64,000 nt of DNA from Agelas oroides (lineage: Eukaryota; Porifera; Demospongiae; Agelasida; Agelasidae). The notes beneath the pieces are model-generated. The model had not been told where the DNA came from, did no database searches, and was given only the letters and a program-made list of their open reading frames with translations. Within the stretch, counting starts at the first letter, position 1, and the number at the start of each line of letters is the position of its first letter. Made by a program: the position numbers and the translations under genes. Positions 1 to 64,000 of this stretch are shown in pieces. The DNA is taken from assembly GCA_949130485.1 (NCBI GenBank), contig OX422198.1, positions 3,057,262-3,121,261 of the forward strand. The letters are read 5' to 3'.

Positions 1-3000
1 TGGAGGTCCTGTGAAGCTGGTGCAAACCTGTTTTTGTGCGGAAAACACCCTATAACGCCGTTTTTACCGCCCAGGTTGGCTGTGAAGCACGTGCAGGCTT
101 GTTAAAGTGCCAATAAAGATTGAGAAAGCAGTTTTCTCCTTTGTGGAGGTCCTGTGAAGCTGGTTCAAACCTGTTTATGTGTGAGAAGCACCCTACAACC
201 CCGTTTTCACCGATGAGGAGGGGCTGTGAACCACCTGCAGGCTTGTGGAAGTGCCAATAAAGATGTAGAAACAGTTTTCACCACTGAAGAGATCCTGTGC
301 AGCTGGTGCAAACCTATTTATATGCGGGAAACACCCTACAACGCCGTTTTAACCGCCGAGGAGGTACTTTGAAGGACATGCAGGCCTGTTTAAGCGACAG
401 TAAAGATAGAGGAAGCAGTTTTCTCCTCTGTGGAGGTCGTGTGAAGCTGGTGCAAACCTGTTTATGTGCTGGAAATACCCTACAACGCCGTTTTCACCGC
501 CGAGGAGGTGCTGTGAAGCATGTGCAAGCCTGTTTAAGTGCTACAAAAGATCAGTTTTCTCCAATGGGGAAGTCCTGTGAGGCTGGTACAAGCCTGTTCA
601 TATGTGCGAAGCACCGTACATCGCCGTTTTCACCTCCGAGGAGGCGTTGTGAAGCACGTGCATGCCTGTTTAAGTTCCACAAAAGATATAGAAAGCAGTT
701 TTCACCGCTCTGAAGATTCTGTGAAGCTGGTGCAATCCAGTTTAAGTGTGGGAAACACCATACAACGCCGTTTTCACCGCCGAAAGGTGGCTGTGAAGCA
801 CGTGCCAGACTGTTTAAGAGCCAGAAAAGATGGAGAAAGCAGTTTTCTCCATTGTGGAGGTCCTGAGTAGCTGGCGCAAGCTTGTTTATGTGTGGGAAGC
901 ACACAACAACGCCGTTTTCACCTTCGAGGACGGGCTGTGAAGCTCGTACAAACTTGTTTATGTGTGGGAAACAACCTCAAAAGCCGTTTTAAACGCGTAG
1001 GAGGTGCTCTGAAGCACGTGCAGGCCTGTTTAAGTGCCAGAAAAGATGGAGAAAGCAGTTTTCTCCATTGTGGAGTTCCTGTGAACCTGGTGCAAACCTG
1101 TTTAGGTGCGGGAAACACCCTATAACGCCGTTTTCACCATCGAGGAGGTGCTGTGAAGCACCTACTGGCCTGTTTAAGTTCCGGAAAGGATGGAGAAAGC
1201 AGTTTTCTCCACTGTGGAGGTCTTGTGAAGCTGGTGGAAACCTGTTTATGTGCGGGAAATACCCTATAACGCCGTTTTAAATGCGGAGGAGGTGCTGTGA
1301 AGCACGTGCAGGCCTTTTTAAGTGCCAGTAAAGATGGAGAAAGCAGTTTTCTCCATTGTGGAGGTCCTGTGAAGCTGGAGCAAACCTGTTTATGTGTGGG
1401 AAGCACCCTACAACGCCGTTTTCACCGATGAGGAGGGGCTGTGAAACTCGTAGACACCTGTTTATGTGCGGGAAACATCCTAAAAAGCCGTTTTAAACGC
1501 GGAGGAGCTGTGAAGCACGTGCAGGCCTGTTTAAGTGCCAGAAAAGATGGAGAAAGCAGTTTTCTCCACTGTGGAGGTCCTGTGAAGCTGGTGCAAGCCC
1601 GTTTATGTGTGGGAAGCACCCTACAACGCCGTTTTCCCCATCGAGGAGGTGCAGTGAAGCTCGTACAAACCTGTTCATGTGCGTACAACCTCGCAAAAAG
1701 CCGTTTTAAATGCGGAGGAGGTGCTGTGAAGCACGTGCAGGCCTTTTTAAGTGCCAGTAAAGATGGAGAAAGCAGTTTTCTCCATTGTGGAGGTCCTGTG
1801 AAGCTGGAGCAAACCTGTTTATGTGTGGGAAGCACCCTACAACGCCGTTTTCACCGATGAGGAGGGACTGTGAAACTCGTAGACACCTGTTTATGTGCGG
1901 GAAACATCCTAAAAAGCCGTTTTAAACGCGGAGGAGCTGTGAAGCACGTGCAGGCCTGTTTAAGTGCCAGAAAAGATGGAGAAAGCAGTTTTCTCCACTG
2001 TGGAGGTCCTGTGAAGCTGGTGCAAGCCCGTTTATGTGTGGGAAGCATCCTACAACGCCGTTTTCACCGTCGAGGAGGGGCTGTGAAGCTCGTACAAACC
2101 TGTTTATGTGCGGAAAACATCGTAAAAAGCCGTTTTATACGGGGAGGAGGTGCTTTGAAACACGTGCAAGCCTGTTTACGTGCCAGCAAAGATGGAGAAA
2201 GCAGTTTTCTCCATTGTGGAGGTCCTGTGAAGCTGGTGCAAATCCGTTCATGTGCGGAAAACACACTGTAACGCCGTTTTCACCGATGAGGAGGGGCTGT
2301 GAAGCTCGTACACACCTGTTTATGTGCGGAAAACATCTTAAAAAGCCGTTTTATAAGGGGAAGAAATTGCTGTGAAGCACGTGCAGGCCTTTTTAAGTGC
2401 CAGAAAAGATGGAGAAAGCAGTTGTTTTCACAACTGTGGAGGTCCTGTGAAGCTGGTGCAAACCTGTTTATGTGTGGGAAACACCCTACAACGCCGTTTT
2501 CACCGCCGGGGAGGTGCAGTAAAGCAAGTGCAGGCCTGTTTAAGTGCTAGAAAAGATCCGTTTTCTCCAATGGGGAAGTCCTGTGAAGCTTGTACAAGCC
2601 TGTTTGTATGTGCAAAGCACCGTACATCGCCGTTTTCACCTCCGAGGTGGTGTTGTGAAGCACGTACAGGCCTGTTTAAGTTCCAGAAAAGATGTAGAAA
2701 GCAGTTTTCACCACTGTGGAAGTCCTGTGAAGCTGGTACAAGCTTTTTGATGTGTGGGAAACACCATACAACGCCGTTTTAACCGCTGAGGAGGTGCTTT
2801 GAAGCACATGCAGGCCTGTTTAAGTGCCAGCAAATATCGAGGAAGCTGTTTTCTCCTCTCTGGAGGTCCTGTGAAGCTGTTGTACACCTGTTTATGAGCG
2901 GGAAACATCCTACAACGCCGTTTTCACCGCCGAGGAGGTGCTTTGAAGCATGTGCAGGCCTGTTTAAGTGCTAGAAAAGATCAGTTTTGTCCAATTGAGA

Positions 3001-5800
3001 AGTCCTGTGAAGCTGGTACAAGCCTGTTTATATGTGCGAAGCACTGTACATCGCCGTTTTCACCTCCGAGGAGGTGTTGTGAAGCACGTGCAGGCCTGTT
3101 TAAGTTCCAGAAAAAATGTAGAAAGCAGTTTTCACCGCTGTGAAGGTCCTGTGGAGCTGGTGCAAGCCTGTTTATGTGTGGGAAGCACCATACAACGCCG
3201 TTTTCACCGCCGAAGAGGGGCTGTGAAGCACGTGCAGGCCTGTGAAAGTGCCAGTAAAGATCGAGGAAGCAGTTTTCTCCACTGTGGAGGTCCTGTGAAG
3301 CTGGTGCAAACCTGTTTATGTGTGGGAAACACCCTACAACGCCGTTTTCACCGCCGAGAAGGTGCTGTAAAGCAAGTGCAGGCCTGTTTAAGTGCTAGAA
3401 AAGATCCGTTTTCTCCAATGGGGAAGTCCTGTGAAGCTGGTACAAGCCTGTTTGTATGTGCGAAGCACCGTACATCGCCGTTTTCACCTCCGAGGTGGTG
3501 TTGTGAAGCACGTGCAGGCCTGTTTAAGTTCCAGAAAAGTTGTAGAAAGCAGTTTTCACCACTGTGGAAGTCCTGTGAAGCTGGTACAAGCTTTTTGATG
3601 TGTGGAAAACACCATACAACGCCGTTTTCACGGCCGAAGAGGGGCTGTGAAGCACGTGCAGGCCTGTTTAAGTGCCAGAAAAAATGGAGAAAGCAGTTTT
3701 CTCCACTGTGGAGGTCCTGTGCAGCTGGTGCAAACCTGTTTATATGCGGGAAACACCATACAACGCCGTTTTAACCGCTGAGGAGGTGCTTTGAAGCACA
3801 TGCAGGCCTGTTTAAGTGCCAGCAAATATCGAGGAAGCTGTTTTCTCCTCTCTGGAGGTCCTGTGAAGCTGTTTTACACCTGTTTATGTGCGGGAAACAT
3901 CCTACAACGCCGTTTTCACCGCCGAGGAGGTGCTGTGAAGCATGTGCAGGCCTGTTTAAGTGCTAGAAAAGATAAGTTTTGTCCAATTGAGAAGTCCTGT
4001 GAAGCTGGTACAAGCCTGTTTATATATGTGCGAAGCACTGTACATCGCCGTTTTCACCTCCGAGGAGGTGTTATGAAGCACGTGCAGTCCTGTTTAAGTT
4101 CCAGATAAAATGTAGAAAGCCGTTTTCACCGCTGTGGAAGTCCTGTGAAGCTGGTACAAGCTTTTTGATGTGTGGGAAACACCATACAACGCCGTTTTCA
4201 CGGCCGAAGAGGGGCTGTGAAGCACGTGCAGGCCTGTTTAAGTGCCAGAAAAACGGAGAAAGCAGTTTTCTCCACTGTGGAGGTCCTGTGCAGCTGGTGC
4301 AAACCTGTTTATATGCGGGAAACACCCTACAACGCCGTTTTGATCGCTGAGGAGGTGCTTTGAAGCACATGCATGCAGGCCTGTTTAAGTGCCAGCAAAT
4401 ATCGAGGAAGCTGTTTTCTCCTCTCTGGAGGTCCTGTGAAGCTGTTGTACACCTGTTTATGTGCGGGAAGCATCCTACAACGCCGTTTTCACAGCCGAGG
4501 AGGTGCTGTGAAGCATGTGCAGGCCTGTTTAAGTGCTAGAAAAGATCAGTTTTGTCCAATTGAGAAGTCCTGTGAAGCTGGTACAAGCCTGTTTATATGT
4601 GCGAAGCACTGTACATCGCCGTTTTCACCTCCGAGGAGGTGTTGTGAAGCACGTGCAGGCCTGTTTAAGTTCCAGAAAAAATGTAGAAAGCAGTTTTCAC
4701 CGCTGTGGAGGTCCTGTGGAGCTGGTGCAAGCCTGTTTATGTGTGGGAAGCACCATACAACGCCGTTTTCACCGCCGAAGAGGGGCTGTGAAGCACGTGC
4801 AGGCCTGTGAAAGTGCCAGTAAAGATCGAGGAAGCAATTTTCTCCTCTGTGGAGGTCCTGTGAAGCTGGTGCAAACCTGTTTATGTGTGGGAAACACCCT
4901 ACAACGCCGTTTTCACCGCCGGGAAGGTGCTGTAAAGCAAGTGCAGGCCTGTTTAAGTGCTAGAAAAGATCCGTTTTCTCCAATGGGGAAGTCCTGTGAA
5001 GCTGGTACAAGCCTGTTTGTATGTGCGAAGCACCGTACATCGCCGTTTTCACCTCCGAGGTGGTGTTGTGAAGCACGTGCAGGCCTGTTTAAGTTCCAGA
5101 AAAGTTGTAGAAAGCAGTTTTCACCACTGTGGAAGTCCTGTGAAGCTGGTACAAGCTTTTTGATGTGTGGAAAACACCATACAACGCCGTTTTCACGGCC
5201 GAAGAGGGGCTGGGAAGCACGTGCAGGCCTGTTTAAGTGCCAGAAAAAATGGAGAAAGCAGTTTTCTCCACTGTGGAGGTCCTGTGCAGCTGGTGCAAAC
5301 CTGTTTATATGTGGGAAACACCCTACAACGCCGTTTTAACCGCTGAGGAGGTGCTTTGAAGCACATGCAGGCCTGTTTAAGTGCCAGCAAATATCGAGGA
5401 AGCTGTTTTCTCCTCTCTGGAGGTCCTCTGAAGCTGTTGTACACCTGTTTATGTGCGGGAAACATCCTACAACGCCGTTTTCACCGCCGAGGAGGTGCTT
5501 TGAAGCATGTGCAGGCCTGTTTAAGTGCTAGAAAAGATCAGTTTTGTCCAATTGAGAAGTCCTGTGAAGCTGGTACAAGCCTGTTTATATGTGCGAAGCA
5601 CTGTACATCGCCGTTTTCACCTCCGAGGAGGTGTTGTGAAGCACGTGCAGGCCTGTTTAAGTTCCAGAAAAAATGTAGAAAGCAGTTTTCACCGCTGTGG
5701 AAGTCCTGTGGAGCTGGTGCAAGCCTGTTTATGTGTGGGAAACACCATACAACGCCCTTTTCACCGCCGAAGAGTGGCTGTGAAGCACGTGCATGCCTGT
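1..5800 (+). repeat. Satellite array segment, subfamily A, forward orientation
   Basis: Tandem 72-bp monomers starting GTGAAGC, mostly alternating A (GTGAAGCTGGTGCAAACC...) and B (GTGAAGCACGTGCAGGCC...) to give a 144-bp dimer. At about 1360-2280 there is a three-monomer variant A-A'-B, where A' reads GTGAAGCTCGTACAAACC and ends in TTTTAAACGCGGAGG; this block repeats at 429-bp offset. From about 2806 a long higher-order block of roughly 11 dimers (1565 bp) is repeated at 4373 and cut short by the insert at 5801. Open frames of up to 268 codons (2968-3774, 4533-5339) are by-products of the repeat length; they occur in several frames at once and are broken by indels. Confidence 0.93.
2806..5800 (+). 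repeat. Two copies of a ~1565-bp higher-order repeat
   Basis: Diagnostic variants (AGCAAATATCGAGGAAGCTG, then TTTTGTCCAATTGAGAAG) recur at about 2806, 3791, 4373 and 5356, with alternating spacings near 985 and 582 bp. This gives a composite block of about 1565 bp (roughly 11 dimers less a few deletions). The two copies are almost identical by eye over their 268-codon shadow frames. The second copy is interrupted at 5801. This is the expected pattern of recent unequal exchange within a satellite. Confidence 0.8.
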
Positions 5801-6448
5801 CTCTGAACGCGGTGACCATATATATATGGTCACATTAAATTTCCCGTCGTCGCGGCGACCATATATATATGCTCACGATAAGTTCGTGTGCTTTCCGCGC
5901 ACAAAGCTAAGAAGCTTAACGAGATTTGAGAGTAGGCCCTCCATGATAAGTGCTAATGAAGCTAGGCCACACCTTTGGACTGACATCATCGTCTGGAAAA
6001 ACAGGAAGAGGCGGTACTTATTCGCGGGTGATCATCAATGAGCTGAGGGCTGCTAAACACGAAGCTTTTTCTTGCCCTCAGGGAGAAAGCGTTCTCCATA
6101 TTTCACTTCAGGTAGGAGTAATAGCTTCAAATAACTTGTAAATCGACTGATTTTGTCGGGGCTGTGGGTATCGGTTGAGAAAATCGGCACCGTTTCCAAC
6201 CGCTCGAAGCGACGATGCATAGTCAGCACAAAATGGCTTCAAACAAGTAGAAATAGCTTACTAGGCACATTTAGATAAACTAGTCCAGCCTATTTACACC
6301 CTATCTACACAAATCAAGCCGTTGGTGCAGCCAAAGACTTTATTAGCACGCTTGTCACTTCGACCGTTCGAGTTGATAACGGTGATAATGAAACAACTTC
6401 CGCGTTAATAAACTGTCATGAATAAAATTACTTCCGCGTTCAAAGGGG
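5801..6448. mobile_element. AT-rich insertion in the satellite, possible non-autonomous DNA element
   Basis: The satellite stops after GCATGCCTGT and resumes at TAAGTGCC, so the 648 bp between is foreign. The ends carry a short inverted motif (TGAACGCGG near the left end, CCGCGTTCA near the right end), and the right side has a second copy (CTTCCGCGTTAA). The left part holds a perfect 20-bp palindrome and a near-copy of it. No target-site duplication is visible and one T of the target appears lost, so a transposon origin is only likely, not shown. No protein domain was recognised; the open frame at 5793-6041 starts in satellite and has no recognisable similarity. Confidence 0.5.
5813..5832. 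repeat. Perfect 20-bp AT-rich palindrome
   Basis: TGACCATATATATATGGTCA is a perfect inverted repeat. A degenerate relative (GCGACCATATATATATGC) follows at about 5857. It lies at the left end of the insert, so it may be a subterminal structure of that element. Confidence 0.85.
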
Positions 6449-8649
6449 TAAGTGCCAGAAAAGATGGAGAATGCAGTTTTCTCCACTGTGGAGGTCCTGT
6501 GAAGCTGGTGCAAACCTGTTTATGTGCGGGAAACACACTATAGCGCCGTTTTCACCGCCGAGCATGTTCTGTAAAACACGTGCAGACCTGTTTAAGTGCC
6601 AGAAAAGATGGAGAAAGCACTTTTCTCCACTGTGGAGGTCCTGTGAAGCTGGTGCAAACCTGTTTATGTGCGGGAAACACACTATAACGCCGTTTTCACC
6701 GCCGAGGAGGTGCTGTAAAACACGTGCAGACCTGTTTAAGTGCCTGAAAAGATGGATAGAGCAGTTTTCTCCACCGTGGAAGTCCTGTGAAGCTGGTGCA
6801 AGCTTGTTTATGTGTGGGAAGCACCCTACAACGTCGTTTTTACTGTCGAGGAGGGGCTGTGAAGCACGTACAAACATGTTTATGTGCGGAAAACAACCTC
6901 AAAAGCCGTTTTAAACGCAGAGGAGGTGCTGTGAAGCACATGCAGGCCTGTTTAAGTGCCACAAAAGATGGAGAAAGCAGTTTTCGCCACTGTGGAGTTC
7001 CTGTGAAGCTGGTGCAATCCTGTTTATGTACGGGACACACCCTATAACGCCGTTTTCACCGCCGAGGAGGTGCTGTGAAGCACGTGCTGGCCTGTTTAAG
7101 TGCCAGAAAAGATGGAGAAACAGTTTTCACCACTGAGGAGGTCCTGTGCAGCTGGTGCAAACCTGTTTATATGTGGGAAACATCCTACAACGCTGTTTTA
7201 ACCGCCGAGGAGGTGCTTTGAAGCACATGCAGGCCTGTTTAAGTTCCAGTAAAGATCGAGGAAGCAGTTTTCTCCTCTGTGGAGGTGGTGCAAATCTGTT
7301 TATGTGCGGGAAACACCCTACAACGCCGTTTTTAACCGCCAAGGTGGTGCTTTGAAGCACTTGCAGGCCTGTTTAAGTTCCAGTAAAGATCGAGTAAGCA
7401 GTTTTCTCCACTGTGGAGGTCCTGTGAAGTTGGTTCAAACCTGTTTATGTGCGGGAAACACCCTACAGGAGGTGCTGTGAAGCATATGCAGGTCTGTTTG
7501 TGTTAGAAAAGATCAATTTTCTCCAATGGGGAAGTCCTGTGAAGTTGGTAAAGCCTGTTTATATGTGCGAAGCACCGTACATCGCCGTTATCACCACCGA
7601 GGAGGTGTTGTGAAGCACATGCAGGCCTGTTTACGTGCCAGAAATGATGTAGAAAGCAGTTTTCACCACTCTGGAGGTCCTGTGAAGCTGGTGCAAGCTT
7701 TTTATGTGCGGGAAACACCATACAACGCCGTTTTCACCGCCGAGGAGGTGCTTTCAAGCACATGCAGGCCTGTTTAAGTGCCAGTAAAGATCGAGGAAGC
7801 AGTTTTCTCCTCTGTGGAGGTCCTGTGAAGCTGGTGCAAACCTGTTTATGTGCAGTGAACGCCCTACAACGCCGTTTTCACCGCCGAGGTGCAGTGAAGC
7901 ATGTGCAGGCCTGTTTAAGTGCTAGAAAAGACCCAATGGGTAAGTCCTGTGAAGCTGGTGCTAACCTATTTAGGTGTTGGAACCACCGCCATTTTCACCG
8001 ATGAGGAGGGCTGTGAAGCTCATACAAACCGGTTTATGTCCGGTAAACATTCTTAAAATCCGTTTTAAACGCAGAGGAGGTGCTGTGAAGCACTTGCAGG
8101 CCTGTTTAAGTACCAGAAAAGATGGAGAAAGCAGTTTTCTCCATTATGGAGGTCCTGTGAAGCTGGTGCAAAGCTGTTTAGGTGTGTGAAGCATCCTACA
8201 ACGCCGTTTTCACCGTCGAGGATGGGCTGTGAAGCTCGTAAAAACCTGTTTATGTGCGGGAAACAACCTCAAAAGACGTTTTAAACGCGGAGGAGATGCT
8301 GTCAAGCACGTGCAGGTCTGTTTAAGTGCCAGAAAAGATTGAGAAAGCAGTTTTCTCCCCTATGGAGGTCCTGTGAAGCTGGTGCAAACCTGTTTATGTG
8401 CGGGAAACACCCTACAACGCCGTTTTCACCTCCGAGGTGCTGTGAAGCATGTGCAGGCCTGTTTAACTTCCAGAAAAGATGGAGAAAGCAGTTTTCATCA
8501 CTGTGGAGGTCCTGTGAAGCTGGTACAAACCTGTTTAGGTATTGGAAGCACCGCCATTTTCACCGATGAGTAGGGCTGTGAAACTCGTACAAACAGGTTT
8601 ATGTTCGGCAAACATCCTTAAAAGCCGTTTTAAACGCGGAGAAGGTGCT

Positions 8650-8721
8650 GTGAAGCACGTGCAGGCCTGTTTAAGTGCCAGAAAAGATGGAGAAAGCAGT
8701 TTTCTCCATTGTGGAGGTCCT
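8650..8721 (+). repeat. Type example of satellite monomer B (72 bp)
   Basis: Exactly 72 bp, starting GTGAAGCACGTGCAGGCCTG and ending GTGGAGGTCCT. It contains the 8-bp palindrome GCACGTGC, the palindrome AGGCCT and the dyad ATGGAGAAAGCAGTTTTCTC followed by CAT. Against monomer A, about 51 of 72 positions agree, with the closest match in the first 35 bases. Confidence 0.9.
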
Positions 8722-8793
8722 GTGAAGCTGGTGCAAACCTGTTTATGTGTAGGAAACACCCTACAACGCCGTTTTCACCGCCGAGGAGGTGCT
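8722..8793 (+). repeat. Type example of satellite monomer A (72 bp)
   Basis: Exactly 72 bp, starting GTGAAGCTGGTGCAAACCTG and ending GAGGAGGTGCT. Near its 3' end is CACCGCCGAGGAGGTG, one mismatch from a perfect dyad; other copies in the array have the perfect form CACCTCCGAGGAGGTG. Confidence 0.9.
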
Positions 8794-8929
8794 GTGAAGC
8801 ATGTGCAGGCCTGTTTAAGTTCCAGAAAAGATGGAGAAAGCAGTTTTCATCACTGTGGAGGTCCTGTGAAGCTGGTACAAACCTGTTTAGGTGTGGGAAG
8901 CACCGCCATTTTCACCGATGAGTAGGGCT

Positions 8930-9001
8930 GTGAAGCTCGTACAAACCGGTTTATGTTCGGCAAACATCCTTAAAAGCCGTTTTAAACGCGGAGGAGGTGC
9001 T
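8930..9001 (+). repeat. Type example of satellite monomer A' (72 bp)
   Basis: Exactly 72 bp, starting GTGAAGCTCGTACAAACC and ending GCGGAGGAGGTGCT. It is a variant of A that follows A directly, giving A-A'-B trimers. The segment CCGTTTTAAACGCGG distinguishes it from A. Confidence 0.85.
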
Positions 9002-10260
9002 GTGAAGCACGTGCAGGCCTGTTTAAGTGCCAGAAAAGATGGAGAAAGCAGTTTTCTCCATTGTGGAGGTCCTGTGAAGTTGGTGCAAACCTGTTTATGT
9101 GTGGGAAACACCCTACAACGCCGTTTTCACCGCCGAGGAGGTGCTGTGAAGCATGCGCAGGCTTAGTAAAGCTCAGTTTTCTCCAATGGGAAAGTCCTGA
9201 GAAGCTTGAAGCTAGTACAAGCCTGTTTATATGTGCGAAGCACTGTACATCGCCGTTTTAACCACCGAGGAGGTGTTGTGAAACACGTGCAGGCCTGTTT
9301 AAGCTCCAGAAAAGATGTAGAAAGCAGTTTTCACCGCTGTGGAGGTGGTGCAAGCCTGTTTATATGCGGGAAACACCCTACAACGCAGTTTTTACCGCCG
9401 AGGAGGTGCTGTGAAGCATGTGCAGGCCAGTTTAAGTGCTAGAAAACATCCGTTTTCTCCAATGGGGAAGTCCTGAGAAGCTGGTACAAGCCTGTTTATA
9501 TGTGCGAAGCACCGTACATCGCCGTTTTCACCCCCGAGGAGGTGTTGTGAAGCACGTGTAGGCCTGTTTAAGTGCAAGAAAATATGTAGAAAGCAGTTTT
9601 CTCCACTGTGGAAGTCCTGTGAAGCTGGAGCAAGCTTGTTTATGTGTGGGAAGCACCCTACAACGCCGTTTTCACCGTCGAGGAAGGGCTGTGAAGCTCG
9701 TACAATCCTGTTTATGTGCGGGAAACAACCTCAAAGGCCGTTTTAAACGCGGAGGAGGTACTGTGAAGCACGTGCGGCCTGTTTAAGTTCCAGTAAAGAT
9801 CGAGGAAGCAGTTTTCTCCTCTTTGGAGGTCCTGTGAAGCTGGTGCAAACCTGTTATGTGTGGGAAACACCCTACAACGCCGTTTTCACCGCCGAGGAAG
9901 TGCTGTGAAGCATGTGCAGGCCCGTTTAAGTGCTAGAAAAGATCAGTTTTCTCCAATGGGGAAGTCCTGTGAGGCTGGTACAAGCCTGTTTATATGTGCG
10001 AAGCACCGTACATCGCCGTTTTCACCTTCGAGGAGGTACTGTGAAGCACGTGCAGGCCTGTTTAAGTTCCAGAAAAGATGTAGAAAGCAGTTTTCACCGC
10101 TGTGTGGAGGTCCTATGGAGTTAGTGCAAGCCTGTTTATCTGCGGGAAACACCCTACAACGCCGTTTAACTGCCGAGGAGGTGCTTTGAAGCACATGCAG
10201 GCCTATTTAAGAGCCAGTAAAGATCGAGGAAGCAGTTTTCTCCACTGTGGAGGTCCTGTG

Positions 10261-51578: not shown

Positions 51579-51613
51579 GGACCAATTTTTCCGCCGGACC
51601 AAAATTTCCGTGA

Positions 51614-54600
51614 CAGGCCTCCACGTGCTTCACAGCACCTCCTAGGAGGTTAAAACAGCGTTATCAGGTCGTTCACGCATATAAACAGGCTTGCACCAAC
51701 CTCACAGGGCCTTCACAGCCGTGAAATCTGCTCTCTCGATCTTCTCTGGCACATAAACAGGCCTATACGTGCTTCACAGCTCCTTGACGGTGGATAAAAC
51801 GGCGTGACCAGGTCTTTCCCACAATGAACAGGCTTGCACTAGCCTCACAGGACTTCCATAGTAGTGAAAACTGCTTTCTGAATCTTCCCTGGCACTTAAA
51901 CAGTCCTCCACATGCTTCACAGTACCTCCTCGGAGGGTTTTTCCCACGCATAAGCACGCTTGCACGAGCAACACAGCACCTCCACAGATGTGAAAACTGC
52001 TTTCTCGATCTTCCATGGCACTTAAACAGGCTTACAAGTGCTTCACAGCATCTCCTCGGAGGTTAAAACGGCTTTATCAGGTAATTTCCTCACATAAACA
52101 GGCTTACACGATCCACACAGGACCTCGACAGCGGTGAAGACTTCTTTCTGAGTCTTCCCTGGCACTTAAACAGGCCTACTCTTGCTTCACAGCATCTCCT
52201 CGGAGGTTAAAACCGCTTTACAAAGATTTCCGGCACACAAACGTGCTCACTAAACTCTCACGGCCTCCACAGCGGTGAAAACTGCTTTCTCAATCAACTC
52301 TGGAACTTAAAGAGGCCTCCACGAGCTTCGCAGTACCTCCTAGGATGTTAAAACAGCGTTATCAGGTCGTTCCCGAATATAAACAGGCTTGCACCAACCT
52401 CACAGGGCCTTCACTGCCGTGAAATCTGCCCTCTCGATCCTCTCTGGCATATAAACAGGCCTACACGTGCTTCACAGCTCCTTGTCGGTAAAACGGCGTG
52501 ACCAGGTCTTTCCCCCACATAAACAGGCTTGCACTAGCCTCACAGGACTTCCATAGTAGTGAAAACTGCTTTCTCGATCTTCCCTGGCACATAAACAGGC
52601 CTACACGTGCTTCATAGCTCCTCTTCGGAAGGTAAAAAGGAGTTATCAGGTCTTTCCCAAACATAAGCAGGCTTAATAATTCAACAACCTTACAGGACTT
52701 CCACAGTGGTGAAAACTGCTTTATCAAACTTCCCTTGCACTTAAATAGGCCTACACTTGCTTCAAAGCATTTCCTCAGCGGTTAAAATGGCTTTTTCAGG
52801 TAATTTCCTCACATAAACAGGCTTGTACTAGCCTCACAGGACTTCCATAGAAGTGAAAACTGCTTTCTCGATCTTCCCTAGCACTGAAACAGGCCTACAC
52901 GTGCCTCACAGCAACTTGTAGGAGGTAAAAACGGACCTATCAGGACTTTCCCACACATAAGCAGGCTTGCACGAGCTCCACAGGACCTCCACAGTGGTGA
53001 AAACTGCTTTCTCGATCTTCCATGGCACTTAAACAGGCCTGCACCTGCTTCACATCACCTCCTCGGAGGATAAAATGGCTTTGTCTAGTTTTTCTGGCAC
53101 ATAAACTGGCTTCCACCAACCTCAAAGGACTTCCACAGGGGTGAAAACTGCTTTCTCAATCTTCCCTAGCAGTGAAACAGGCCTGCACCTGCTTCACAGC
53201 ACTTCCTCAGTTGTTAAAACGGCTTTGTCAAGTAATTTCCTCATAAACAGGCTTGCACGAGCGTCACAGGACCTCGACAGTGGTGAAAACTTCCTTCTCA
53301 GTCTTCCCTGGCACTTAAACAGGCCTGCACGTGCTTCACAGAACCTCCTCCGAGGTTAAAACTGCGTTATCATGTCTTTCCTGCACACAAACAGGCTTGC
53401 ACGAGCCTCATAGGAACACCACAGATGAGAAAAATGCTTTCTCGATCTTCCCTGGCAGTTAAACAGGCCTACACGTGCTTCACAGCACCTCCTCGAAGGG
53501 TAAAAAGGAGTTATCAGGTCTTTCCCACACATAAGCATGCTTGCACGAGCCGCACAGGAGCTCCACAGTGGTGAAAACTGCTTTTTCGATCTTCCATGGT
53601 ACTCCTGCATCTGCTTCACATCACCTCCTCGCAGGATAAAACGGCTTTGTCAGGTCTTTCCGGCACATAAACTGTCTTGCACCAACCTCACAGGACTTCC
53701 ATGCAGAGTGGTGAAAACTGCTTTCTCGATCTTCCCTAGCACTTAAACAGGCCAGCACCTGCTTCATAGCACCTCCGCAGTTGTTAAAACGGCTTTGTCA
53801 GGTAATTTCCTCACATAAATAGGCTTGCACCAGCCTCACAGGACCTCGACAGTGGTAAAACCTTCCTTCTCAGTCTTCCCTGGCACTTAAACAGGCCTGG
53901 ACGTGCTTCACAGCACCTCCTAAGCGGTTAAAACGGCGTTATCAGGTCGTTCCCGCATATAAAAACGCTTCCACCAACCTCACAGGGCCTTCACAGTCGT
54001 GAAATCTGCTCTCTCGATCTTCTCTGGCACATAAACAGGCCTATACGTGCTTCACAGCTCCTTGTCGGTAGATAAAACGGCGTGACCCGGTCTTTCCCCC
54101 ACATAAACAGGCTTGCACAAGCCTCACAGGACTTCCATAGTAGTGAATACTTCTTTCTCGATCTTCTCTGGCACATAAACAGGCCTACACGTGCTTCACA
54201 GCTTCTTCTCGGTGGATAAAATGCCGTTATCAGGTCTTTCCCGCACATAAACAGACTTGCACGAGTATCATAGGACCACCACGGTGGAGGAGAATGCTTT
54301 CTCGATCTTCCCTGGCACTTAAACCGGCCTCAACGTGCTTCACAGCGTCTCCTCAGAGGTTAAAACCGCTTTACAAGGATTTCCCGCACACAAGCATGCA
54401 TGCACTAAGGTCTCACGGCCACCACAGCGGTGAAAAACTGCTTTCTCGATCATCTCTGGAACTTAAACAGGACTCCTCGTGCCTCACAGCAACTCGTAGG
54501 AGGTAAAAACGGACCTATCAGGTCTTTCCCACACATAAGCAGGCTTGCACGAGCCCCACAGACCTCCACAGTGGTGAAAACTGCTTTCTCAATCTTCCAT

Positions 54601-57600
54601 GGCACTTAAACAGGCTTGCACCTGCTTCACAGCACTTCCTCAGCTGTTAAAACGGCATTGTCAGGTAATATCCTCACATAAACAGGCTTGCATGAGCCTC
54701 ACAGGACCTCGACAGCGGTGAAAACTTCCTTCTCTGTCATCCCTGGCACTTAAACAGGCCTGCACGTGCTTCACAGCACCTCCTCGGCCGTGAAAACGGC
54801 GTTATCTGGTCTTTCCTGCACATAAACAGGCTTTCACGAAACTCATAGGACTACCACTGTGGAGATGAATGCTTTGTCGATCTTCCCTGGCAATTAAACA
54901 GGCCTACACGTGCTTCAAAGCATCTCCTCGGTGGTTAAAACCGCTTTACAAGGATTACCCGCACACAAGCGTGCTTGCACTAAGCTCTCACGGCCTCCAC
55001 AGCGGTTAAAACTGCTTTCTCGATCATCTCTGGAACTTAAACAGGCCTCCACGTGCTTCAGAGCACCTCCTAGGAGGTTAAAACGGCGTTATGAGGTCCT
55101 TCCCGCATATAAACAGGCTTGCATCAACCTTACAGGGCCTTCACAGCGGTTAAATCTGCTCTCTCGATCTTCTCTGGCACATAAACAGGCCTACACATGC
55201 TTCACAGCTCCTTCTCGGTGGATAAAACGACGTGACCAGGTCTTTCCCCCAACATAAACAGGCTTGCACGAGCAGCACAGGACCTCCACAGTTGTGAAAA
55301 CTGCTTTCTCGATCTCCCATGGCAATTAAACAGGACTGCACCTGCTTCACAGCACTTCCTCAGTGGTAAAAACAGCTTTGACAGGTAATTTCCTCACATA
55401 AACGGGCTTCCACGAGCCTCACAGGACCTCGACAGTGATGAAAGTTTCCTTCTCAGTCTTCCTTTGCACTTTAGAGGTGAAAAATGCTTTCTCGATCTTC
55501 CCTGGCACTTAAACAGGCCTACACGTGCTTCACAGCATCTCCTCGGAGTTTAAAACCGCTTTACAAGGATTACCCGCACACAAATATTGCTTGCACTAAG
55601 CTCTCACGGCCTCCACAGCGGTTAAAACTGCTTTCTCGATCATCTCTGGAACTTAAACAGGCCTCCACGTGCTTCACAGCACCTCCTAGGAGGTTAAAAC
55701 GGCGTTATCAGGTCCTTCCCGAATATAAACAGGCTTGCACCAACCTTACAGGGCCTTTACAGCGGTTACATCTGCTCTCTCGATCTTCTCTGGCACATAA
55801 ACAGGGCTACACGTGCTTCACAGCTCCTTCTCGGTGGATAAAACGGCGTGACCAGGTCTTTCCCCCACATAAACAGGCTTGCACAAGCCTCACAGGACTT
55901 CCATAGTAGTGAAAACAGCTTTCTCGCTCTCCCTGGCACTTAAACACTTCCTCGGAGGGTAAAACGGAAGTATCAGGTCTTTCCCACACATAAGCAGGCT
56001 TGCACGAGCAGCACAGGACCTCCACAGTTGTGTAAACTGCTTTCTCGATCTTCCATGGCAATTAAACAGGACTGCATCTGCTTCACAGCACTTCCTCAGC
56101 GGTAAAAACAGCTTTGACAGGAAATTTCCTCACATAAACAGGCTTGCACGAGCCTCACAGGACCTCGACAGTGATGAAAGTTTCCTTCTCAGTGTTCCTT
56201 GGCACTTTAGAGGTGAAAAACGCTTTCTCGATCTTCCCTGGCACTTAAACAGGCCTACACGTGCTTCACAGCATCTCCTCGGAGGTTAAAACCGCTTTAG
56301 AAGGATTTCACGCACACAAATATTGCTTGCACTAAGCTCTCACGGCCTCCACAGCGGTGAAAACTGCTTTCTCGATCATTTCTGGAACTTAATCAGGCCT
56401 GTACACGTGCTTCACAGCACCTTCTTGGAGGGTAAAAGGGAGTTATCAGGTCTTTCCCACACATCAGCAGGCTTGCACGAGCCGCACAGGACCTCCACAG
56501 TGGTGAAAACTGCTTTCTCGATCTTCCATGGCACTTAAACAGGCCTGCACCTGCTTCACAGCACCCCCTCGGTGGTTAAACGGCTTTGTCAGGTAATTTC
56601 CTCACATAAACAGGCTTGCACGAGCCTCACAGGACCTCGACAGCGGTGAAAATTTCTTTCCCAGTCTTCGCTGGTACTTAAACAGGCCTGCACGTGCTTC
56701 ACAGCATCACCTCAGCGGTTAAAACGGCGTTATCAGGTCTTTCCTGCACATAGACAGGCTTGCACGAGCCTCATAGGAGAAGCACAGTGGAGAAAATGCT
56801 TTCTCGATCTTCCCTGTCACTTAAACGCGCTTCACGTCGTCTCCTCGGAGGTTAAAACCGCTTTACAAGGATTTCCCAAACACAAACATGCTTGCACTAA
56901 GCTTTCACGGCCTCCACAGCGGTGAAAACTGCTTTCTCGATCATCTTTGGAACTTAAACAGGCTTCCACGTGCTTCACAGCACCTCCTAGGGGGGTTAAA
57001 CCGAGTTATCAGGTCTTTCCCACACATATATATATAAGCAGGATTGCACGAGCAGCACAGTACCTCCACAGTGGTGAAAACTGCTTTCTCGATCTTCCAT
57101 GGCACTTAAACAGGCCTGCACCTGCTTCACATCACCTCCTCGGAGGATAAAACAGCTTTGTCTGGTCTTTCCGGCATATAAACCGGCTTGCACCAACCTC
57201 AAAGGACTTCCACAGTGGTGAAAACTGCTTTCTCAATCTTTCCTAGCAGTGAAACAGGCCTGCACCTGCTTCACAGCACTTCCTCAGTTGTTAAAACGGC
57301 TTTGTCAGGTAATTTCCTCACTTAAATAGGCTAGCACGAGCCTCACAGGACCTCGACAGTGGTGAAAACTTCCTTCTCAGTCTTCCCTGGCACTTAAACA
57401 GGCCTGCACGTGCTTCACAGAACCTCCTCCGAGGTTAAAACTGCGTTATCAGGTCTTTCCCGCATATAAACTGACTTGCACGAACCGCATAGGAACACCG
57501 CACAAGAACTCCACAGTGGTGAAAACTGCTTTTTCGATCTTCCATGGAACTCCTGCATCTGCTTCACAGCATCTCCTAGGAGGTTAAAACGGCTTTGTCA

Positions 57601-58818
57601 GGTCTTTCTTGCATATAAACGGGCTTGCACCAACCTCACAGGACTTCAACAGTGGTGAAAACTGCTTTCTCGATCTTCCCTAGCAGTGAAACAGGACTGC
57701 ACCTGCTTTACAGCACTTCCTCAGTTGTTAAAACGGCTTTGTCAGGTAATTTCCTCACTTAAATAGGCTAGCACGAGCCTCACAGGACCTCGACAGTGGT
57801 GAAAACTTCCTTCTCAGTCTTCCCTGGCACTTAAACAGGCCTGCACGTGCTTCACAGAACCTCCTCCGAGGTTAAAACTGCGTTATCAGGTCTTTCCCGC
57901 ATATAAACTGACTTGCACGAACCGCATAGGAACACCACGGAGGAGAAGAATGCTTTCTCGATCTTCCCTGGCACTTAAACAGGCCTACACGTGCTTCACA
58001 GCATCTTCTCGGAGGTTAAAACCGCTTTATAAGGATTTCCCGCACGCAAACATTCCTGCACTAGGCCTCTACAGCGGTGCAAACTGCTATCTCGATCATC
58101 TTTGGAACTTAAACAGGCCTACGTGCTTCACAGCACCTCCTAGGAGGTTAAAACTGCTTTGTCAGGTCTTTCTGGCACATAAACGGGGTTGCACCAACCT
58201 CACAGGACTTCAACAGCGGTGAAAAGTGGTTTCTTAAAACGGATTTGTCAGGTAGTTTCCTCACATAAACAGGCCTGCACGTGCTTCACAGCACCTCCTC
58301 GGCCGTGAAAACGGCGTTATCTGGTCTTTCCTGCACATAAACAGGCTTGCACGAGCCTCATAGGAGTACCACGGTGGAGATTAATGCTTTGTCGATCTTC
58401 CCTGGCAATTAAACAGGCCTACACGTGCTTCAAAGCATCTCCTCGGTGGTTAAAACCGCTTTACAAGGATTACCCGCACACAAGCGTGCTTGCACTAAGC
58501 TCTCACGGCCTCCACAGCGGTTAAAACTGCTTTCTCGATCATCTCTGGAACTTAAACAGGCCTCCACGTGCTTCACAGCACCTCCTAGGAGGTTAAAACG
58601 GCGTTATCAGGTCCTTCCCGCATATAAACAGGCTTGCACCAACCTTACAGGGCCTTCACAGCGGTTAAATCTACTCTCTCCATCTTCTCTGGCACATACA
58701 CAGGGCTACACGTGCTTCACAGCTCCTTCTCGGTGGATAAAACGGCGTGACCAGGTCTTTCCCCCACATAAACAGGCTTGCACAAGCCTCACAGGACTTC
58801 CATAGTAATGAAAACTGC
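51614..58818 (-). repeat. Satellite array segment, subfamily B, reverse orientation
   Basis: Subfamily B dimers. The block near 54910-55257 recurs near 58425-58805 (offset ~3515 bp) and, in shorter form, near 55550-55900. A variant CACTTTAGAGGTGAAAAA occurs at about 55468 and 56203. A 437-bp tandem repeat with the marker CTCACTTAAATAGGCTAGCA lies at about 57317 and 57754. The segment ends abruptly at AAAACTGC. Confidence 0.92.
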
Positions 58819-59014
58819 AAAGAGGTGTGTGTGTAAATCACGACTTTTGACACAATCTTGTCAACTTCAGACGGTAAGGAACAACACACCAGGCAAACTC
58901 AGCGACTTTCTCGGATCTTGACAGGCATATTATGTCATTCAAAATACGTACAGCTACCAGAATGGGTACAACCATGTCATTAAGTTCTCAAACCTCGTTC
59001 AAAAAAAAATTCGC
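58819..59014. other. Unique spacer at the subfamily B / subfamily A boundary
   Basis: 196 bp that do not match the satellite: a short GTGTGTGTG run, then unremarkable sequence, ending with a run of nine A before TTCGCC. Subfamily B lies on the left and subfamily A on the right. No inverted ends or target duplication were seen. Confidence 0.65.
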
Positions 59015-62000
59015 CCTCGACGGTGAAAACAGTGTTGAAGGGTGCTTCCCACAAATAAACAGGCTTGCTCCAGCTTCACAGGACTTCCACAGTGGAGGAA
59101 ACTGCTTTTTCCATCTTTTCTGGCATTTAAACATGCCTGTACGTGCTTCACACCTTCTCATCGATGGTGAAACTGTGTTATAGGATGTTTCTCGCGCAAA
59201 AACAGGTTTGCACCATCTTCACAGGACCTCCATAGTGGAGAAACCTGCTTTCTCCATCTTTTCTAGCACTTAAACAGGCCTGCACGTCCTTCACAGCACC
59301 TCCGCGTTTAAAACAACCTTTTAGGGTGTTTCCCGCACATAAAGAGGCCTGCAAGTGCTTCACAGCACTTCCTCCGCGTTTAAAACGATTTATTAGGATG
59401 GTTTCCGCACGTAAACAGCTTTGTACGAGTTTCACAGCCCCTCCTCGACGGTGAAAACGGCGTTGAAGGGTGCTTCCCACACATAAACAGGCTTGCACCA
59501 GCTTCAAAGGACTTCCACAGTGGTAAAAACTGCTTTCTCCATCTTTTCTGGCACTTAGAGAGCAGCGGTGAAAACGGCATTGCAGGGTACTTCCCACACA
59601 TAAACTGCAGGACTTCCACAGTGGTGAAAACTGCTTTCTCCATCTTTTCTGGCACTTAAAGAGGCCTACACGTTCATCACAGCACCTCCTCGGCTGTGAA
59701 AACGGCGTTGTACGGTGCTTCCCACACATAAACAGGCTTACACCAGCTTCACAGGACTTCCACAGTGCTTTCTCCATCTTTTCTGGCACTTAAAGGGGCT
59801 TGCACGTGCTTCACAACAACTCCTCGGCGGGGAAAACCGCGTTGTAGGGTACTTCCAACACAAAAACAGGTATGCACCAGCTTCACAGGTCCTCCACAGT
59901 GGAGAAAACTGCTTTCCCCATTTTTCTGGCACATAGACAAGCCTGCACGGGCATCTCCTCCGCGTTTAAAACGTTTTTTTTAGGATGATTTCCGCACGTA
60001 AACAGGTTAGTACAAGCTTCACAGCCCCTCCTCGACGGTGAAAACGGCGTTGAAGGGTGCTTCACACACATAAACAGGCTTGCTCCAGCTTCACAGGATT
60101 TCCACAGTGGAGGAAATTGCTTTCTCCATCTTTCCTGGCACTTAAACAGCACCTCCTCCGCGTTTAAAACGGCTTTTTAGGGTGTTTCCCGCACATAAAC
60201 AGGTATTCACCAGCTTCACAGGACCTCCACAGTGGAGAAAACTGCTTTACCCATCGTTTCTGGCACTTAGACAGGCCTGCACGGGCTTCACAGCACCTCC
60301 TCCGCGTTTAAAAATGTTTTTTAAGATGTTTTCCGCACATAAACAGGTTGGTACGAGCTTCACAGCCACTCCCCGACGATGAATACGGCGTTGAAAGGAG
60401 CTTCCCACACATAAACAGTCTTGCTCCAGCTTCACAAGGCTTACACAGTGGAGAAAACTGCTTTCCCCATCTTTTTTTGTACTTAAACAGGCCTGCACGC
60501 GCATCACCTCCTCCGCGTTTAAAACGGTCTTTCAGGATGTTTTCAGCGCATAAACAGGTTGGTACGAGCTTCACAGCCACTCCCCGACGGTGAATACGGC
60601 GTTGAAAGGTGCTTCCCACACATAAACAGGCTTGCTCCAGCTTCACAAGGCTTACACAGTGGAGAAAACTGCTTTCCCCATCGTTTTTGGCACTTAAACA
60701 GGCCTGCACGCGCATCACCTCCGCGTTTAAAACGGTCTTTCAGGATGTTTTCATCGCATAAACTGGTTGGAACGAGCTTCACAGCCACTCCCCGACGGTG
60801 AATACGGCGTTGAAGGGTGCTTCCCACACATACACAGGCTTGCACCAGCTTCACAGGACTTCCAGAGCGGTGAAAACTGCTTTCTCCATCTTTTCTAGCA
60901 CTTAAAGAGGCCTGCACGTTCATCACAGCACCTCCTCAGCGGTGAAAACGGCGTTTCACGCACATAAACAGGTATCCACCAGCTTCACAAGACCTCCACA
61001 GACGAGAAAACTGCTTCCCCGATCTTCACTGGCACTTAAACTGGACTGCACGTGCTTCACAGCACCCCCTCCGCATTTAAACGGCTTTTTAGGGTGTTTA
61101 CCGCACATAAACAGGTTTGCAACAGCTTCACAGGGATTCCACAGTGAAGGAAACTCCTTTCTCCATCTTTCCTGGCACTTAAACAAGCCTGCACGTGCTT
61201 CACAGCAACTCCTCGGCAGTGAAAACGGCGTTGTAGGGTGCTTCCCACACATAAACTGGCATCACTTCCACAGTGGTGAAAACTGCTTTCTCCATCTTTT
61301 CTGGCACTTAAAGAGGCCTGTACGTTCATCACAGCACCTCCTCGGCGGTGAAAACGGCGTTGTACTGTGCTTCCCACACATAAACAGGCTTGCACCAGCT
61401 TCACAGGACTTCCACAGTGGTGAAAACCGCTTTCTCAGACTTTTCTGGCACTTACAGAGGCCTGCACGTTCATCACAGCACTTCCTCTTCCTGCACATAA
61501 ACAGCCAGCTTCACAGGACCTCCACAGACGAGAAAACTGCTGCCCTGATCTTCACTGGCACTTAAACAGCACTACACGTGCTTCACAGCACCTCCTCAAT
61601 GGTGAAAACTGTGCTATAGGATGTTTTTCGCACATAAATAGGTTTGCACCTGCTTCACAGGACCTCCACAGTGGAGAAAACTGCTTTCTCCATCTTTTCT
61701 AGCACTTAAACAGGCCTGCACGTGCTTCCCAGCACCTCCTCCGCGTTTAAAGGCTTTTAGGGTGTTTCCCGCACATAAACAGGTATGCACCAGCTTCACA
61801 TGACCTCCACAGTGTAGAGAACTGCTTTCCCCATCTTTTCTGGTACTTAGGCAGGCCTGCACGTGCTTCACAGCACCTCCTCCGAGTTTAAAACGGTTAT
61901 TTAGGATGTTTTCCGCACATAAACAGGTTGGTACGAGCTTCACTGCCACTCCCCGACGGTGAATACGGCGTTGAAGGGTGCTTCCCACACATAAACAGGC

Positions 62001-64000
62001 TTGCCCCAGCTTCACAGGACTTCCACAGTGGAGAAAACTGCTTTCTCCATCTTTTCTGGCACTTAAACAGACCTGAACGTGCTTCACAGCACCTCCTCGG
62101 CGGTGAAAACGGCGTTGTAGGGGACTTCCCGCACAAAAACAGGTTTGGACCAGCTTCACAGCATCTCCACAATGGAGAGAACTGCTTTCTCCTTCCTTTC
62201 TAGCACTTAAACAGGCCTGCACTTGCTTTACAGCAACTGTTTAAAATGGATATTTAGGGTGTTTTCCGCACTTAAAGAGGCTTGCACGTGCTTCACAGTA
62301 GCTCCTCGTCGGTGAAAACGGCGTTATATGGGTGTTTCCCGCACCAAAACAGGTTTGCACCAGCTTCACAGGACTTCCACAATGGAGAAAACTGCTTTCT
62401 CCATCCTTTCTGGCACTTAGCCAGGCCCGCACGTGCTTCCCAGCACCTCGTTTAAAACGGATCTTTAGGATGTTTTCCACACATAAACAGGCTTCACAGC
62501 CCCTCCTCGATGGTGTAAACGGCGTTGTAGGGTGCTTCCTACACACAAACAGGCTTGTTGCATCTAGGATTTCCACAGTGGAGAAAACTGCTTTCTCCAC
62601 CTTTTCCGGTGCTTAAACAGGCCTTCACGTTCTACACAGCACTCCTTGGCGGTTTAAACAGCTTTGTAGTGTGTTTCTCGCACATAAACAGGTTTGCACC
62701 ATCTGCAGAGGAGGTGAAAACAGCTTTCTCAATCTGTACTGGTACGTAAACAGGCCTGCACCTGCTTCACAGCACCTCCTTGGCGGTTTAAACGGCGTTG
62801 TAGGGTGCTTCCCGCACATAAACAGGTTTGCGCCATCTGCAGAGGACCTCCACAGTGGTGAAAACTGCTTTCACAATCTTTACTGGCACTTAAACAGGCC
62901 TTCACGTGCTTCACAGCCTACCTCGGTGGTGAAAACGACGTTGTACGGTGCTTCCCGCATAGAAACAGGTTTGCACCAGCTGCATAGGACCTCCTCAGTG
63001 GTGAAAACTGTTTCTCCACCTTTATTGGCACTTCCACAGTCCTGCACGTGCTTCACAGTCCCACTCTGGCGGTGAAAACGGTGTTGTATGGTGCTTCCCA
63101 CACATAAACAGGCTTAAACCAACCTCACAGGATCTCCACAGTTGTGAAAACAGCTTTCTCCATCTTTTCTGGCACTTAAACAGGACTGCACGTGCTTCAC
63201 AACACCACCTCGGCAGTGTTATAGGGTGTGTACCGCACATAAACAGGTGTGCAACAGCCCTCCACAGTGGAGAAAACTGATTTCTCCGTCTTTGCTGGCA
63301 CTTAAACAGGTCTGAACGTGCTTCGCAGCACCTCCTCGGTGGTGAAAACGGTGCTTCCCACACATAAACAGGCTTTCACCAGCTTCACAGGACTTCCACA
63401 GTGGTAAAAACTGCTTTCTCCAACATTTCTGGCACTTAAAGAGGCCTGCATGTTCTTCACAGCACCTCCTTGGAGGTGAAAACGGCGTTATACCGTGCTT
63501 CCCTCATAGAAACAGTTTTGCACCAGCTGCACAGGACTTCCTCAGTGGATAAAACTGTTTCTCCATCTTTATTGGCACTTCCACAGGTCTTCACGTGCTT
63601 CACAGCCCCTCTTCGGCGGTGAAAACGGCGTTGTATCGTGCTTCCCACACATAAACAGGCTTACACCAACGTCACAAGATCTCCACAGTTGTGAAAACTG
63701 CTTTCTCCATCATTTCTGGCACTTAAACAGGACTGCACGCGATTCAGAGCACCACCTCGGCTGTGAAAACGGCGTTATAGGGTGTGTTTCGCAACAGCCT
63801 TCCACAGTGGAGAAAACTGATTTGTCCATCTTTTCTGGCACTTAAACAGGTCTGAACGTGCTTCACAGCACCTCCTCGGCGGTGAAAACGGTGCTTCCCA
63901 CACATAAACAGGCTTTCACCAGCTTCACAGGATTTCCACAGTTGTGAAAACTGCTTTCTCCAACATTTCTGGCACTTAAAGAGGCCTGCATGTTCTTCAC
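59015..64000 (-). repeat. Satellite array segment, subfamily A, reverse orientation, to the window end
   Basis: Returns to subfamily A diagnostic bases (GGTGAAAACGGCGTTG, CTCCATCTTTTCTGG, ACCAGCTTCACAGG) on the minus strand, with A-A'-B trimers around 59280-62280 marked by CCGCGTTTAAAACGG. A local duplication is seen at about 60300-60530 against 60510-60740. The array continues past the window edge. Confidence 0.92.

What the first reader, a model, noticed from the sequence alone, without database searches (positions are those of the whole stretch)
1..64000. A ~54-kb satellite of 72-bp monomers in an A+B 144-bp dimer
Exact 72-bp units can be read off (8650-8721, 8722-8793, 8794-8865). A and B agree at about 51 of 72 positions, so an ancestral 72-bp monomer duplicated, diverged, and the dimer then amplified, as in alphoid-type higher-order satellites. 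Some 750 monomers are present once insertions are subtracted. I do not recognise the family.
Basis: seen in the sequence. Interest (0 to 1): 0.7.

Follow-up and report, generated by a model that had tools for sequence, protein, structure and literature searches.

The report
Candidate centromere repeat, probably freshwater sponge
The window lies inside one of the repeat blocks that were found once each on at least 21 of 23 chromosomes of an animal that looks like a freshwater sponge, so it is probably centromere DNA, built of a 72-letter unit in two alternating versions, and in many of these blocks the units point inward from both arms.

Summary
A profile finds 776 copies of a 72-bp unit over 53,092 of 64,000 bases; A and B alternate in 449 of 463 neighbour pairs and their consensuses agree at 51 of 72 positions.

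The window lies at 3.06-3.12 Mb of contig C16 (7.67 Mb) in a 259-Mb, 141-contig genome. The array spans at least 3.048-3.316 Mb. The family forms one internal block on 21 of the 23 largest contigs; C7 and C10 gave no listed match. Contig number and sizes fit freshwater sponges; the species was not confirmed by sequence. Best reading: a centromeric or closely pericentromeric satellite, with no description found in my searches.

New: nine blocks, mapped in 10-kb bins, switch strand once, all in the same sense (units run 5' to 3' inward); none does the opposite; 15 of 18 blocks with both strands lean that way (post hoc, sampled points). The window's own block is a mosaic. Monomers carry a 10.29-bp WW/SS antiphase. 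No CENP-B box, coding constraint or hairpin excess was found.

The parts
1..28815 (+). Satellite array, dimer subfamily D1, units on the + strand (broken by inserts); continues left of the window to a reverse-strand stretch that ends 2,417 bases before window base 1
   Evidence: nhmmer hits and strand runs
28716..28931 (.). Strand switch from + to - units (junction near 28,813); units run 5' to 3' toward it from both sides
28812..32186 (-). Satellite array, subfamily D1, reverse strand
32187..58818 (-). Satellite array, subfamily D2, reverse strand (broken by inserts)
59015..64000 (-). Satellite array, subfamily D1 again; continues about 1,370 bases past the window end, then + units
8650..8865 (+). 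The three 72-bp example units B, A, B of the finding
12080..16055 (+). DNA transposon inserted in the array: 23-bp terminal inverted repeats (91% complementary), Tc5-type HTH at 12,965 ff. and DDE_1 at 13,444 ff.
24641..26930 (.). Insert with long terminal inverted repeats (arms of 97 and 315 nt, 94% and 97% complementary)
36199..37334 (.). Fold-back insert: 526-nt arms, 98% complementary, 84 nt apart
50738..51612 (.). Non-satellite insert with a 24-nt inverted repeat (88%) at its ends
5806..6448 (.). Non-satellite insert
39932..40351 (.). Non-satellite insert
58819..59014 (.). Non-satellite stretch at the D2/D1 border

Best explanation
This is part of the centromeric, or closely pericentromeric, satellite of an animal with 23 chromosome-scale contigs, most likely a freshwater sponge. 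Shown: one 72-bp family forms a single internal block on at least 21 of the 23 largest contigs; in the window it is an A+B dimer; copies from one sampled stretch resemble each other more than copies from other chromosomes; most blocks in which both strands were seen have units pointing inward. Inferred: the block is where centromeric chromatin and kinetochore form. The unit equals seven helical turns of 10.29 bp with AT-rich and GC-rich steps in antiphase, so each copy would present the same face to a histone core and the array would favour regularly wrapped nucleosomes. Within each arm of a block, unequal exchange would amplify local variants, first the dimer and then larger segments, while older stretches collect transposons and are pushed outward.
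For: One block per contig: of complete match lists, 80 of 80, 72 of 72, 36 of 36 and 11 of 11 lie in one interval per contig; the listed part (165 in all) agrees;'s first 100 of 4,666, 97 lie in the C1 block and 3 at two stray loci. Searches found or extended blocks on C2, C8, C17 and C6. Position 0.30-0.82 of contig length on the 19 contigs whose length was shown. Samples placed at known matches on 11 other contigs are 34-98% satellite. Nearest relative (closer than 500 bp excluded) lies on the same chromosome in 79% (A) and 76% (B) of monomers against 16% and 10% after label shuffling. No profile match at E 0.1 in the 91 kb left of the C16 block, but a distant relative of the same length 36 kb outside it, as an older layer would be. 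Of 10 long ORFs that I chose from that flank, 5 match reverse transcriptase and 1 a DDE transposase. No profile hit in three contig-end samples. WW/SS antiphase at 10.29 bp, p = 0.002 by column shuffling.
Against: No chromatin, FISH or Hi-C data, so the kinetochore site is not shown. C7 and C10 gave no listed match. Of 50 evenly placed or outlying samples, 27 held no satellite hit: several lay beyond the blocks, but blocks such as C13 (under 70 kb) are small or broken. Like copies in the window are only about 80% alike and interrupted, which fits pericentromere or a decayed array as well as an active core. Chromosome specificity is partial: B units of C16 are no closer to distant C16 units than to the C18 sample (0.49), and except for C16 the test compares single 3-6 kb stretches. 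The helical signal is weaker if any harmonic is allowed (p = 0.028) and in the other blocks (p = 0.009, any harmonic 0.11), which are the same family and not independent. No CENP-B box. The species was not confirmed by sequence.
Confidence: 0.78

Rival explanations
1. Pericentromeric heterochromatin only: the satellite flanks a kinetochore site made of another sequence (for example a more homogeneous array or a transposon-rich island inside the block), and serves silencing and cohesion rather than kinetochore assembly.
For: Moderate identity (about 0.80 between like monomers), inserts and transposon pieces in the flank are typical of pericentromere; other parts of the blocks are more homogeneous, e.g. 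13.5 kb duplicated at 97.6% on C16 and 72-bp units at 86-88% on C3. About 40 kb of the 173 kb of C16 block in hand is not satellite.
Against: TRF on the 264 kb of C16 in hand shows no other tandem array of 300 bp or more inside the block; the 9 other rows all lie in the left flank and the longest is 1.1 kb. Centres of the other blocks were not read through.
Confidence: 0.3
2. A non-centromeric heterochromatic satellite (knob-like, B- or sex-chromosome-linked, subtelomeric) that happens to form one block per chromosome.
For: No direct link to centromere function. Two short stray copies (about 2.4 and 3.4 units) lie 8.6 and 2.8 Mb from the C1 block.
Against: At least 21 of 23 large contigs carry it, once each and internally; the three contig ends sampled (of 46) have no profile hit, one of them partly N.
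Confidence: 0.08
3. A giant tandem-repeat coding region (24 codons per unit); long open frames run through many units.
For: 57 ORFs of 110 aa or more in the window, four of them in the transposon; three of six frames of the dimer consensus are open.
Against: Column variability does not differ by codon position (p = 0.44 for A, 0.32 for B), and open consensus frames alone give long ORFs. Two array ORFs scanned gave no Pfam match.
Confidence: 0.01
4. The inward polarity is a by-product of history: one palindromic array spread to all chromosomes by exchange between centromeres, or inversions and chromosome fusions left arms of opposite sense; it has no function now.
For: The window's block is a six-run mosaic, and C15, C16 and C22 lean the other way; in the window D1 copies on the two strands are as alike as on one, so inversions inside blocks occur.
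Against: Nine single-switch blocks all share one sense; on C1 the arms carry different variants (in the first 100 of 314 matches, 31 + hits read CCAGG, then one CCAAC, then 68 read CCAAG of which 67 are -), so the arms have evolved apart yet keep their sense.
Confidence: 0.5

Closest known systems
Primate alpha satellite (alphoid; recalled)
   Same: Tandem array of diverged A and B monomers, local variants, larger duplicated segments, one region per chromosome.
   Different: 72-bp unit against about 171 bp; no CENP-B box in the window; unrelated host; blocks of at most about 350 kb by the matches seen in this assembly.
AB-dimer higher-order centromere repeats in general (Melters et al. 2013, PMC4053949, passages read)
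   Same: The paper illustrates AB dimers (Sorghum) and reports clear higher-order structure in 76 of 171 species with Sanger data.
   Different: Its main text does not mention sponge, Amphimedon or Porifera.
Maize CentC (PMC3053214, passages read)
   Same: Centromeric repeat with a roughly 10-bp AA/TT periodicity to which CENH3 nucleosomes conform.
   Different: 156-bp unit; there shown by CENH3 ChIP, here only a sequence property.
Inverted-repeat centromeres (fission yeast, some Candida; recalled)
   Same: Two arms of opposite orientation around a centre.
   Different: Here the arms are satellite arrays; on C1, where it was looked at, they carry different variants and are not matched inverted copies.

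Membership tests
Centromeric satellite (functional class) | Tandem family present once per chromosome at an internal site | tested here: met
   21 of 23 largest contigs, one interval each; C7 and C10 without listed match
Centromeric satellite (functional class) | Bound by CENP-A/CENP-C nucleosomes | not testable with these tools
   No chromatin data
Centromeric satellite (functional class) | Lies at the primary constriction | not testable with these tools
   Needs FISH or Hi-C
Alpha satellite | About 171-bp monomer | tested here: not met
   72-bp monomer
Alpha satellite | CENP-B box in one monomer type | tested here: not met
   Window: 0 matches to the core, 0.16 expected; 0 to a full box with up to 3 mismatches, 0.56 expected; box recalled; other blocks not searched
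Alpha satellite | A/B dimer and higher-order repeats | tested here: met
   449 of 463 neighbour pairs alternate; local 208-, 352- and 424-bp repeats, duplications of 7-17 kb on C16
Tandem-repeat protein gene | Selection by codon position | tested here: not met
   p = 0.44 and 0.32
Freshwater sponge (Spongillida) genome | 23 chromosomes, chromosome 1 much the largest, 219-326 Mb | tested here: met
   C1 32.68, C2 26.17, C3 19.41 ... C23 6.76 Mb; 19 shown lengths plus four bounded by size order give 98.8-99.1% of 259.3 Mb against PMC12141999 Table 2, PMC7385117 and the abstract of PMC12616128
Freshwater sponge (Spongillida) genome | Mitochondrial or rRNA sequence of Spongillida | not tested
   The PF00115 request did not complete 12 times (first, last)

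The most novel reading that the evidence does not exclude
The 72-bp unit is directional in function, and centromeres of this animal are built as two convergent half-arrays: on each arm units point 5' to 3' toward the centre, and the strand switch marks the core. A polar property of the unit (a one-way replication-fork block, directional transcription or directional loading of a protein) keeps the sense fixed on most chromosomes while the arms' variants turn over independently.
Probability: 0.2. Interest if true: 0.8.

Novelty: new member of a known kind. Interest (0 to 1): 0.5.

Why it matters
If the animal is a sponge, this would be a candidate centromere sequence for one of the earliest-branching animal lineages, with an assembled block on at least 21 of 23 chromosomes. 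The listings of my ten paper searches showed no description of a sponge centromere satellite; in the three freshwater sponge genome papers whose matching passages I saw, a centromere is named once (PMC7385117) and satellites only in one reference title (PMC12616128). The shared inward polarity, if it holds in complete maps, is a feature that models of centromere array growth would have to explain, and it can be tested with existing assemblies.

Tried and rejected
Rfam scan of the window: 0 matches. CENP-B box: none. Hairpin or dyad excess: mean DNA-fold z -0.45 in 55 satellite stretches against -0.73 in 56 flank stretches, p = 0.73. Coding: rejected. Origin from a transposon: not supported by the two stray copies on C1. 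One has no inverted repeats around it; the other is flanked by a weak 19-nt pair (79%), which I take for chance, and has a 27-nt pair further off; near the first is a 149-bp stretch that also occurs in the window. The window inserts tested (7 of 8 gaps) have no second copy in the 264 kb scanned. Spongilla lacustris assembly odSpoLacu1.1 as the source: rejected, lengths differ (31.14, 17.78, 11.34 Mb for chromosomes 1, 3, 5); another assembly of that species is not excluded. Eunapius fragilis: disfavoured on total length, 218.9 Mb. Mended: my notes put D2 at 36-59 kb, one search gives 32.2-58.8 kb; a claim that no other tandem family lies in the C16 stretch was tested only; the chromosome-specificity claim was narrowed. 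The position and strand lists were typed by hand from the listings and thinned, so they are a map of sampled points.
Full report
What is in the window. The periodicity is real: lags 144 and 72 have the highest autocorrelation of 1-1999, 0.486 and 0.467, TRF finds arrays across the window, and an iterated profile has 776 hits over 53,092 bases. Near-full-length hits number 590, 342 of them exactly 72 bp. They fall into two types, A (289) and B (301), that alternate: of 463 adjacent pairs, 215 are A-B, 234 B-A, 14 A-A and none B-B. Mean identity is 0.61 to the next unit and about 0.80 at two, four or six units. Consensus A and B agree at 51 of 72 positions.

Units are on the + strand to 28,815 and on the - strand from 28,812, apart from two short stray hits. 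Two dimer subfamilies are present: D2 fills 32.2-58.8 kb on the - strand, and D1 the rest, on both strands; D1 units are about as alike across strands (0.81 A, 0.83 B) as within a strand (0.80-0.85). Inserts include a Tc5/pogo-type DNA transposon with 23-bp terminal repeats at 12,080-16,055, an element with long inverted ends at 24,641-26,930 and a fold-back element at 36,199-37,334.

Where it lies. The window is C16:3,057,262-3,121,261 of a 259.3-Mb assembly in 141 contigs; C16 is 7.67 Mb long. The array begins at 3,048,455, with no profile match at E 0.1 in the preceding 91 kb, and matches continue to at least 3,315,807. I hold C16 only to 3,221,261; there 132 of 173 kb of the block is satellite. 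Within it are recent large duplications, 13.5 kb at 97.6% and 16.9 kb at 92.5%. Of 10 long ORFs that I chose from the 25 listed in the left flank, 5 match reverse transcriptase, 1 a transposase and 4 nothing.

An older layer. About 36 kb outside the left edge, near 3,012,729-3,013,840, TRF finds another tandem repeat with periods 72, 144 and 426 at 62-80%. The profile does not recognise it, but its 72-bp consensus aligns over its whole length with the B consensus; 0.2% of 1,000 shuffles of the consensus score as high. I read it as a diverged older layer of the same satellite, in the way that old alpha-satellite layers lie outside young ones (recalled). It is one array on one chromosome.

Genome-wide distribution. 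An exact 24-base core occurs 4,666 times and its reversed control never. Rarer variants of the core, listed in full, fall in one interval per contig: 80 of 80, 72 of 72, 36 of 36, 11 of 11; the 18 agree. Searches added C8 and C17 and widened C2, C3, C6, C22 and C23. Together 21 of the 23 largest contigs carry a block; C7 and C10 gave no listed match, and a negative here is weak because listings are capped. The only matches seen outside blocks are two fragments of about 2.4 and 3.4 units on C1. Samples taken at known matches on 11 other contigs are 34-98% satellite. A and B both occur in the samples of C1, C5, C9, C12, C18 and C20; those of C13, C14, C23 and C2 hold no full A monomer; 22 of 48 in C3 are hybrids with an A-like start and B-like remainder. 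Nearest relatives lie on the same chromosome far more often than after label shuffling (0.79 and 0.76 against 0.16 and 0.10; 90 of 590 window monomers and all 365 others). Since all contigs but C16 were sampled in one short stretch, that shows local likeness. On C16, units more than 20 kb away beat the samples of most other contigs, but not C18 for B units (0.49), and 41-45% of units are beaten by none; so specificity is partial, and C16, C18, C5 and C20 look like one group.

Which animal. Lengths shown for 19 contigs, with C7, C10, C19 and C21 bounded by size order, add up to 256.2-256.8 of 259.3 Mb, so 23 contigs are the chromosomes. Freshwater sponges have 23 chromosomes, the first much the largest (Ephydatia muelleri, PMC7385117, passages read; Spongilla lacustris, 31.14 to 6.79 Mb, PMC12141999, passages read). 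The size series here (32.68, 26.17, 19.41, 12.57, 11.68 ... 6.76 Mb) is close to that of S. lacustris but is not the published assembly. The species was not confirmed by sequence because the gene search did not complete.

Polarity of the blocks. Strands of listed matches, joined with 400-base and 160-base samples, give a coarse map in 10-kb bins by majority. Of the 50 samples, 23 held satellite: 16 of 20, 5 or more points on C9 and C17 among 7 of 20, and 2 of 10 where hits were called; counting L051's short 41-base hit among the 16. Nine blocks (C1, C4, C5, C6, C8, C11, C19, C20, C21) are + on the left and - on the right in all their bins; none is the reverse. C1 has a few minority units inside bins. 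C12 fits in 20 of 22 bins. Of 18 blocks with both strands, 15 have the mean of their - bins to the right of their + bins (sign test p = 0.0075, Wilcoxon p = 0.0007); by best single split 13 fit the inward sense better, 3 the outward (C16, C22, C23) and 2 tie (C15, C17). C2 and C18 show one strand only and C13 has one bin. Turning a contig round does not change this sense, so it is not an effect of contig orientation, and random joins in the assembly would blur it rather than make it (inference). On C1 the arms carry different variants, so they are not a fresh inverted copy. The pattern was noticed after the data were seen and some blocks rest on few points (C4 on six bins, one of them +). The window's own block is a mosaic of six runs; its switch at 28,813 is of the inward kind.

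A helical signature. In the 590 monomers the seventh harmonic of 72 bp (10.29 bp) is the strongest for AT-rich minus GC-rich dinucleotides, the two being 167 degrees apart (p = 0.002 for this harmonic, 0.028 for any; AT-rich alone 0.0035 and 0.0415, GC-rich alone 0.0125 and 0.22). It ranks first in 7 of 11 other samples and second in 4; pooled p = 0.009, any harmonic 0.11. A comparable 10-bp property governs CENH3 nucleosome placement on maize CentC (PMC3053214, passages read).

Negative results. No CENP-B box, no hairpin excess, no coding constraint, no Rfam family.

Reading. The best-supported account is a centromeric or closely pericentromeric satellite, amplified in stages (monomer, dimer, larger segments). 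Location once per chromosome is shown for 21 of 23; centromere function is inferred. As a kind it is familiar; the host lineage and the common inward polarity are what make it worth following. Literature: ten searches (listings with starts of abstracts) and passages of PMC12141999, PMC12616128, PMC10232365, PMC7385117, PMC4053949, PMC3053214 and PMC5844345 showed no description of this family.

Noticed in passing
Genome blocks on C1, C4, C5, C6, C8, C11, C19, C20, C21 (coordinates): Satellite units point inward from both arms with one strand switch per block at 10-kb resolution; no block shows the opposite single switch.
   Followed up: partly
C16:3,012,729-3,013,840, in loci L010 (5,468 ff.), about 44 kb left of the window: A second tandem repeat with periods 72 and 144, not recognised by the profile but alignable with the B consensus; probably an older layer of the satellite.
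   Followed up: partly
window 36199-37334: Fold-back element with 526-nt arms, 98% complementary, sitting inside the array.
   Followed up: no
window 12080-16055: Tc5/pogo-type transposon (HTH_Tnp_Tc5 and DDE_1 in separate frames), a relative of the transposase family from which CENP-B is thought to derive (recalled), inserted in the candidate centromere array.
   Followed up: partly
C1 26.84-26.89 Mb and 26.93-27.04 Mb: Match spacing suggests higher-order repeats of about 14 kb in the left arm, and of about 1.5 kb and 20-30 kb in the right arm.
   Followed up: no
L030 1644-1749 and 5945-6000 (C3): A second short tandem repeat, 24 bp GGATGGGGCATTTATGGCTTAAAT, inside the C3 block.
   Followed up: no
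PMC12141999, chromosome 7 at 3.21 Mb: The Spongilla lacustris paper notes a collapsed repeat joining the arms of chromosome 7; it may be the counterpart of these blocks.
   Followed up: no
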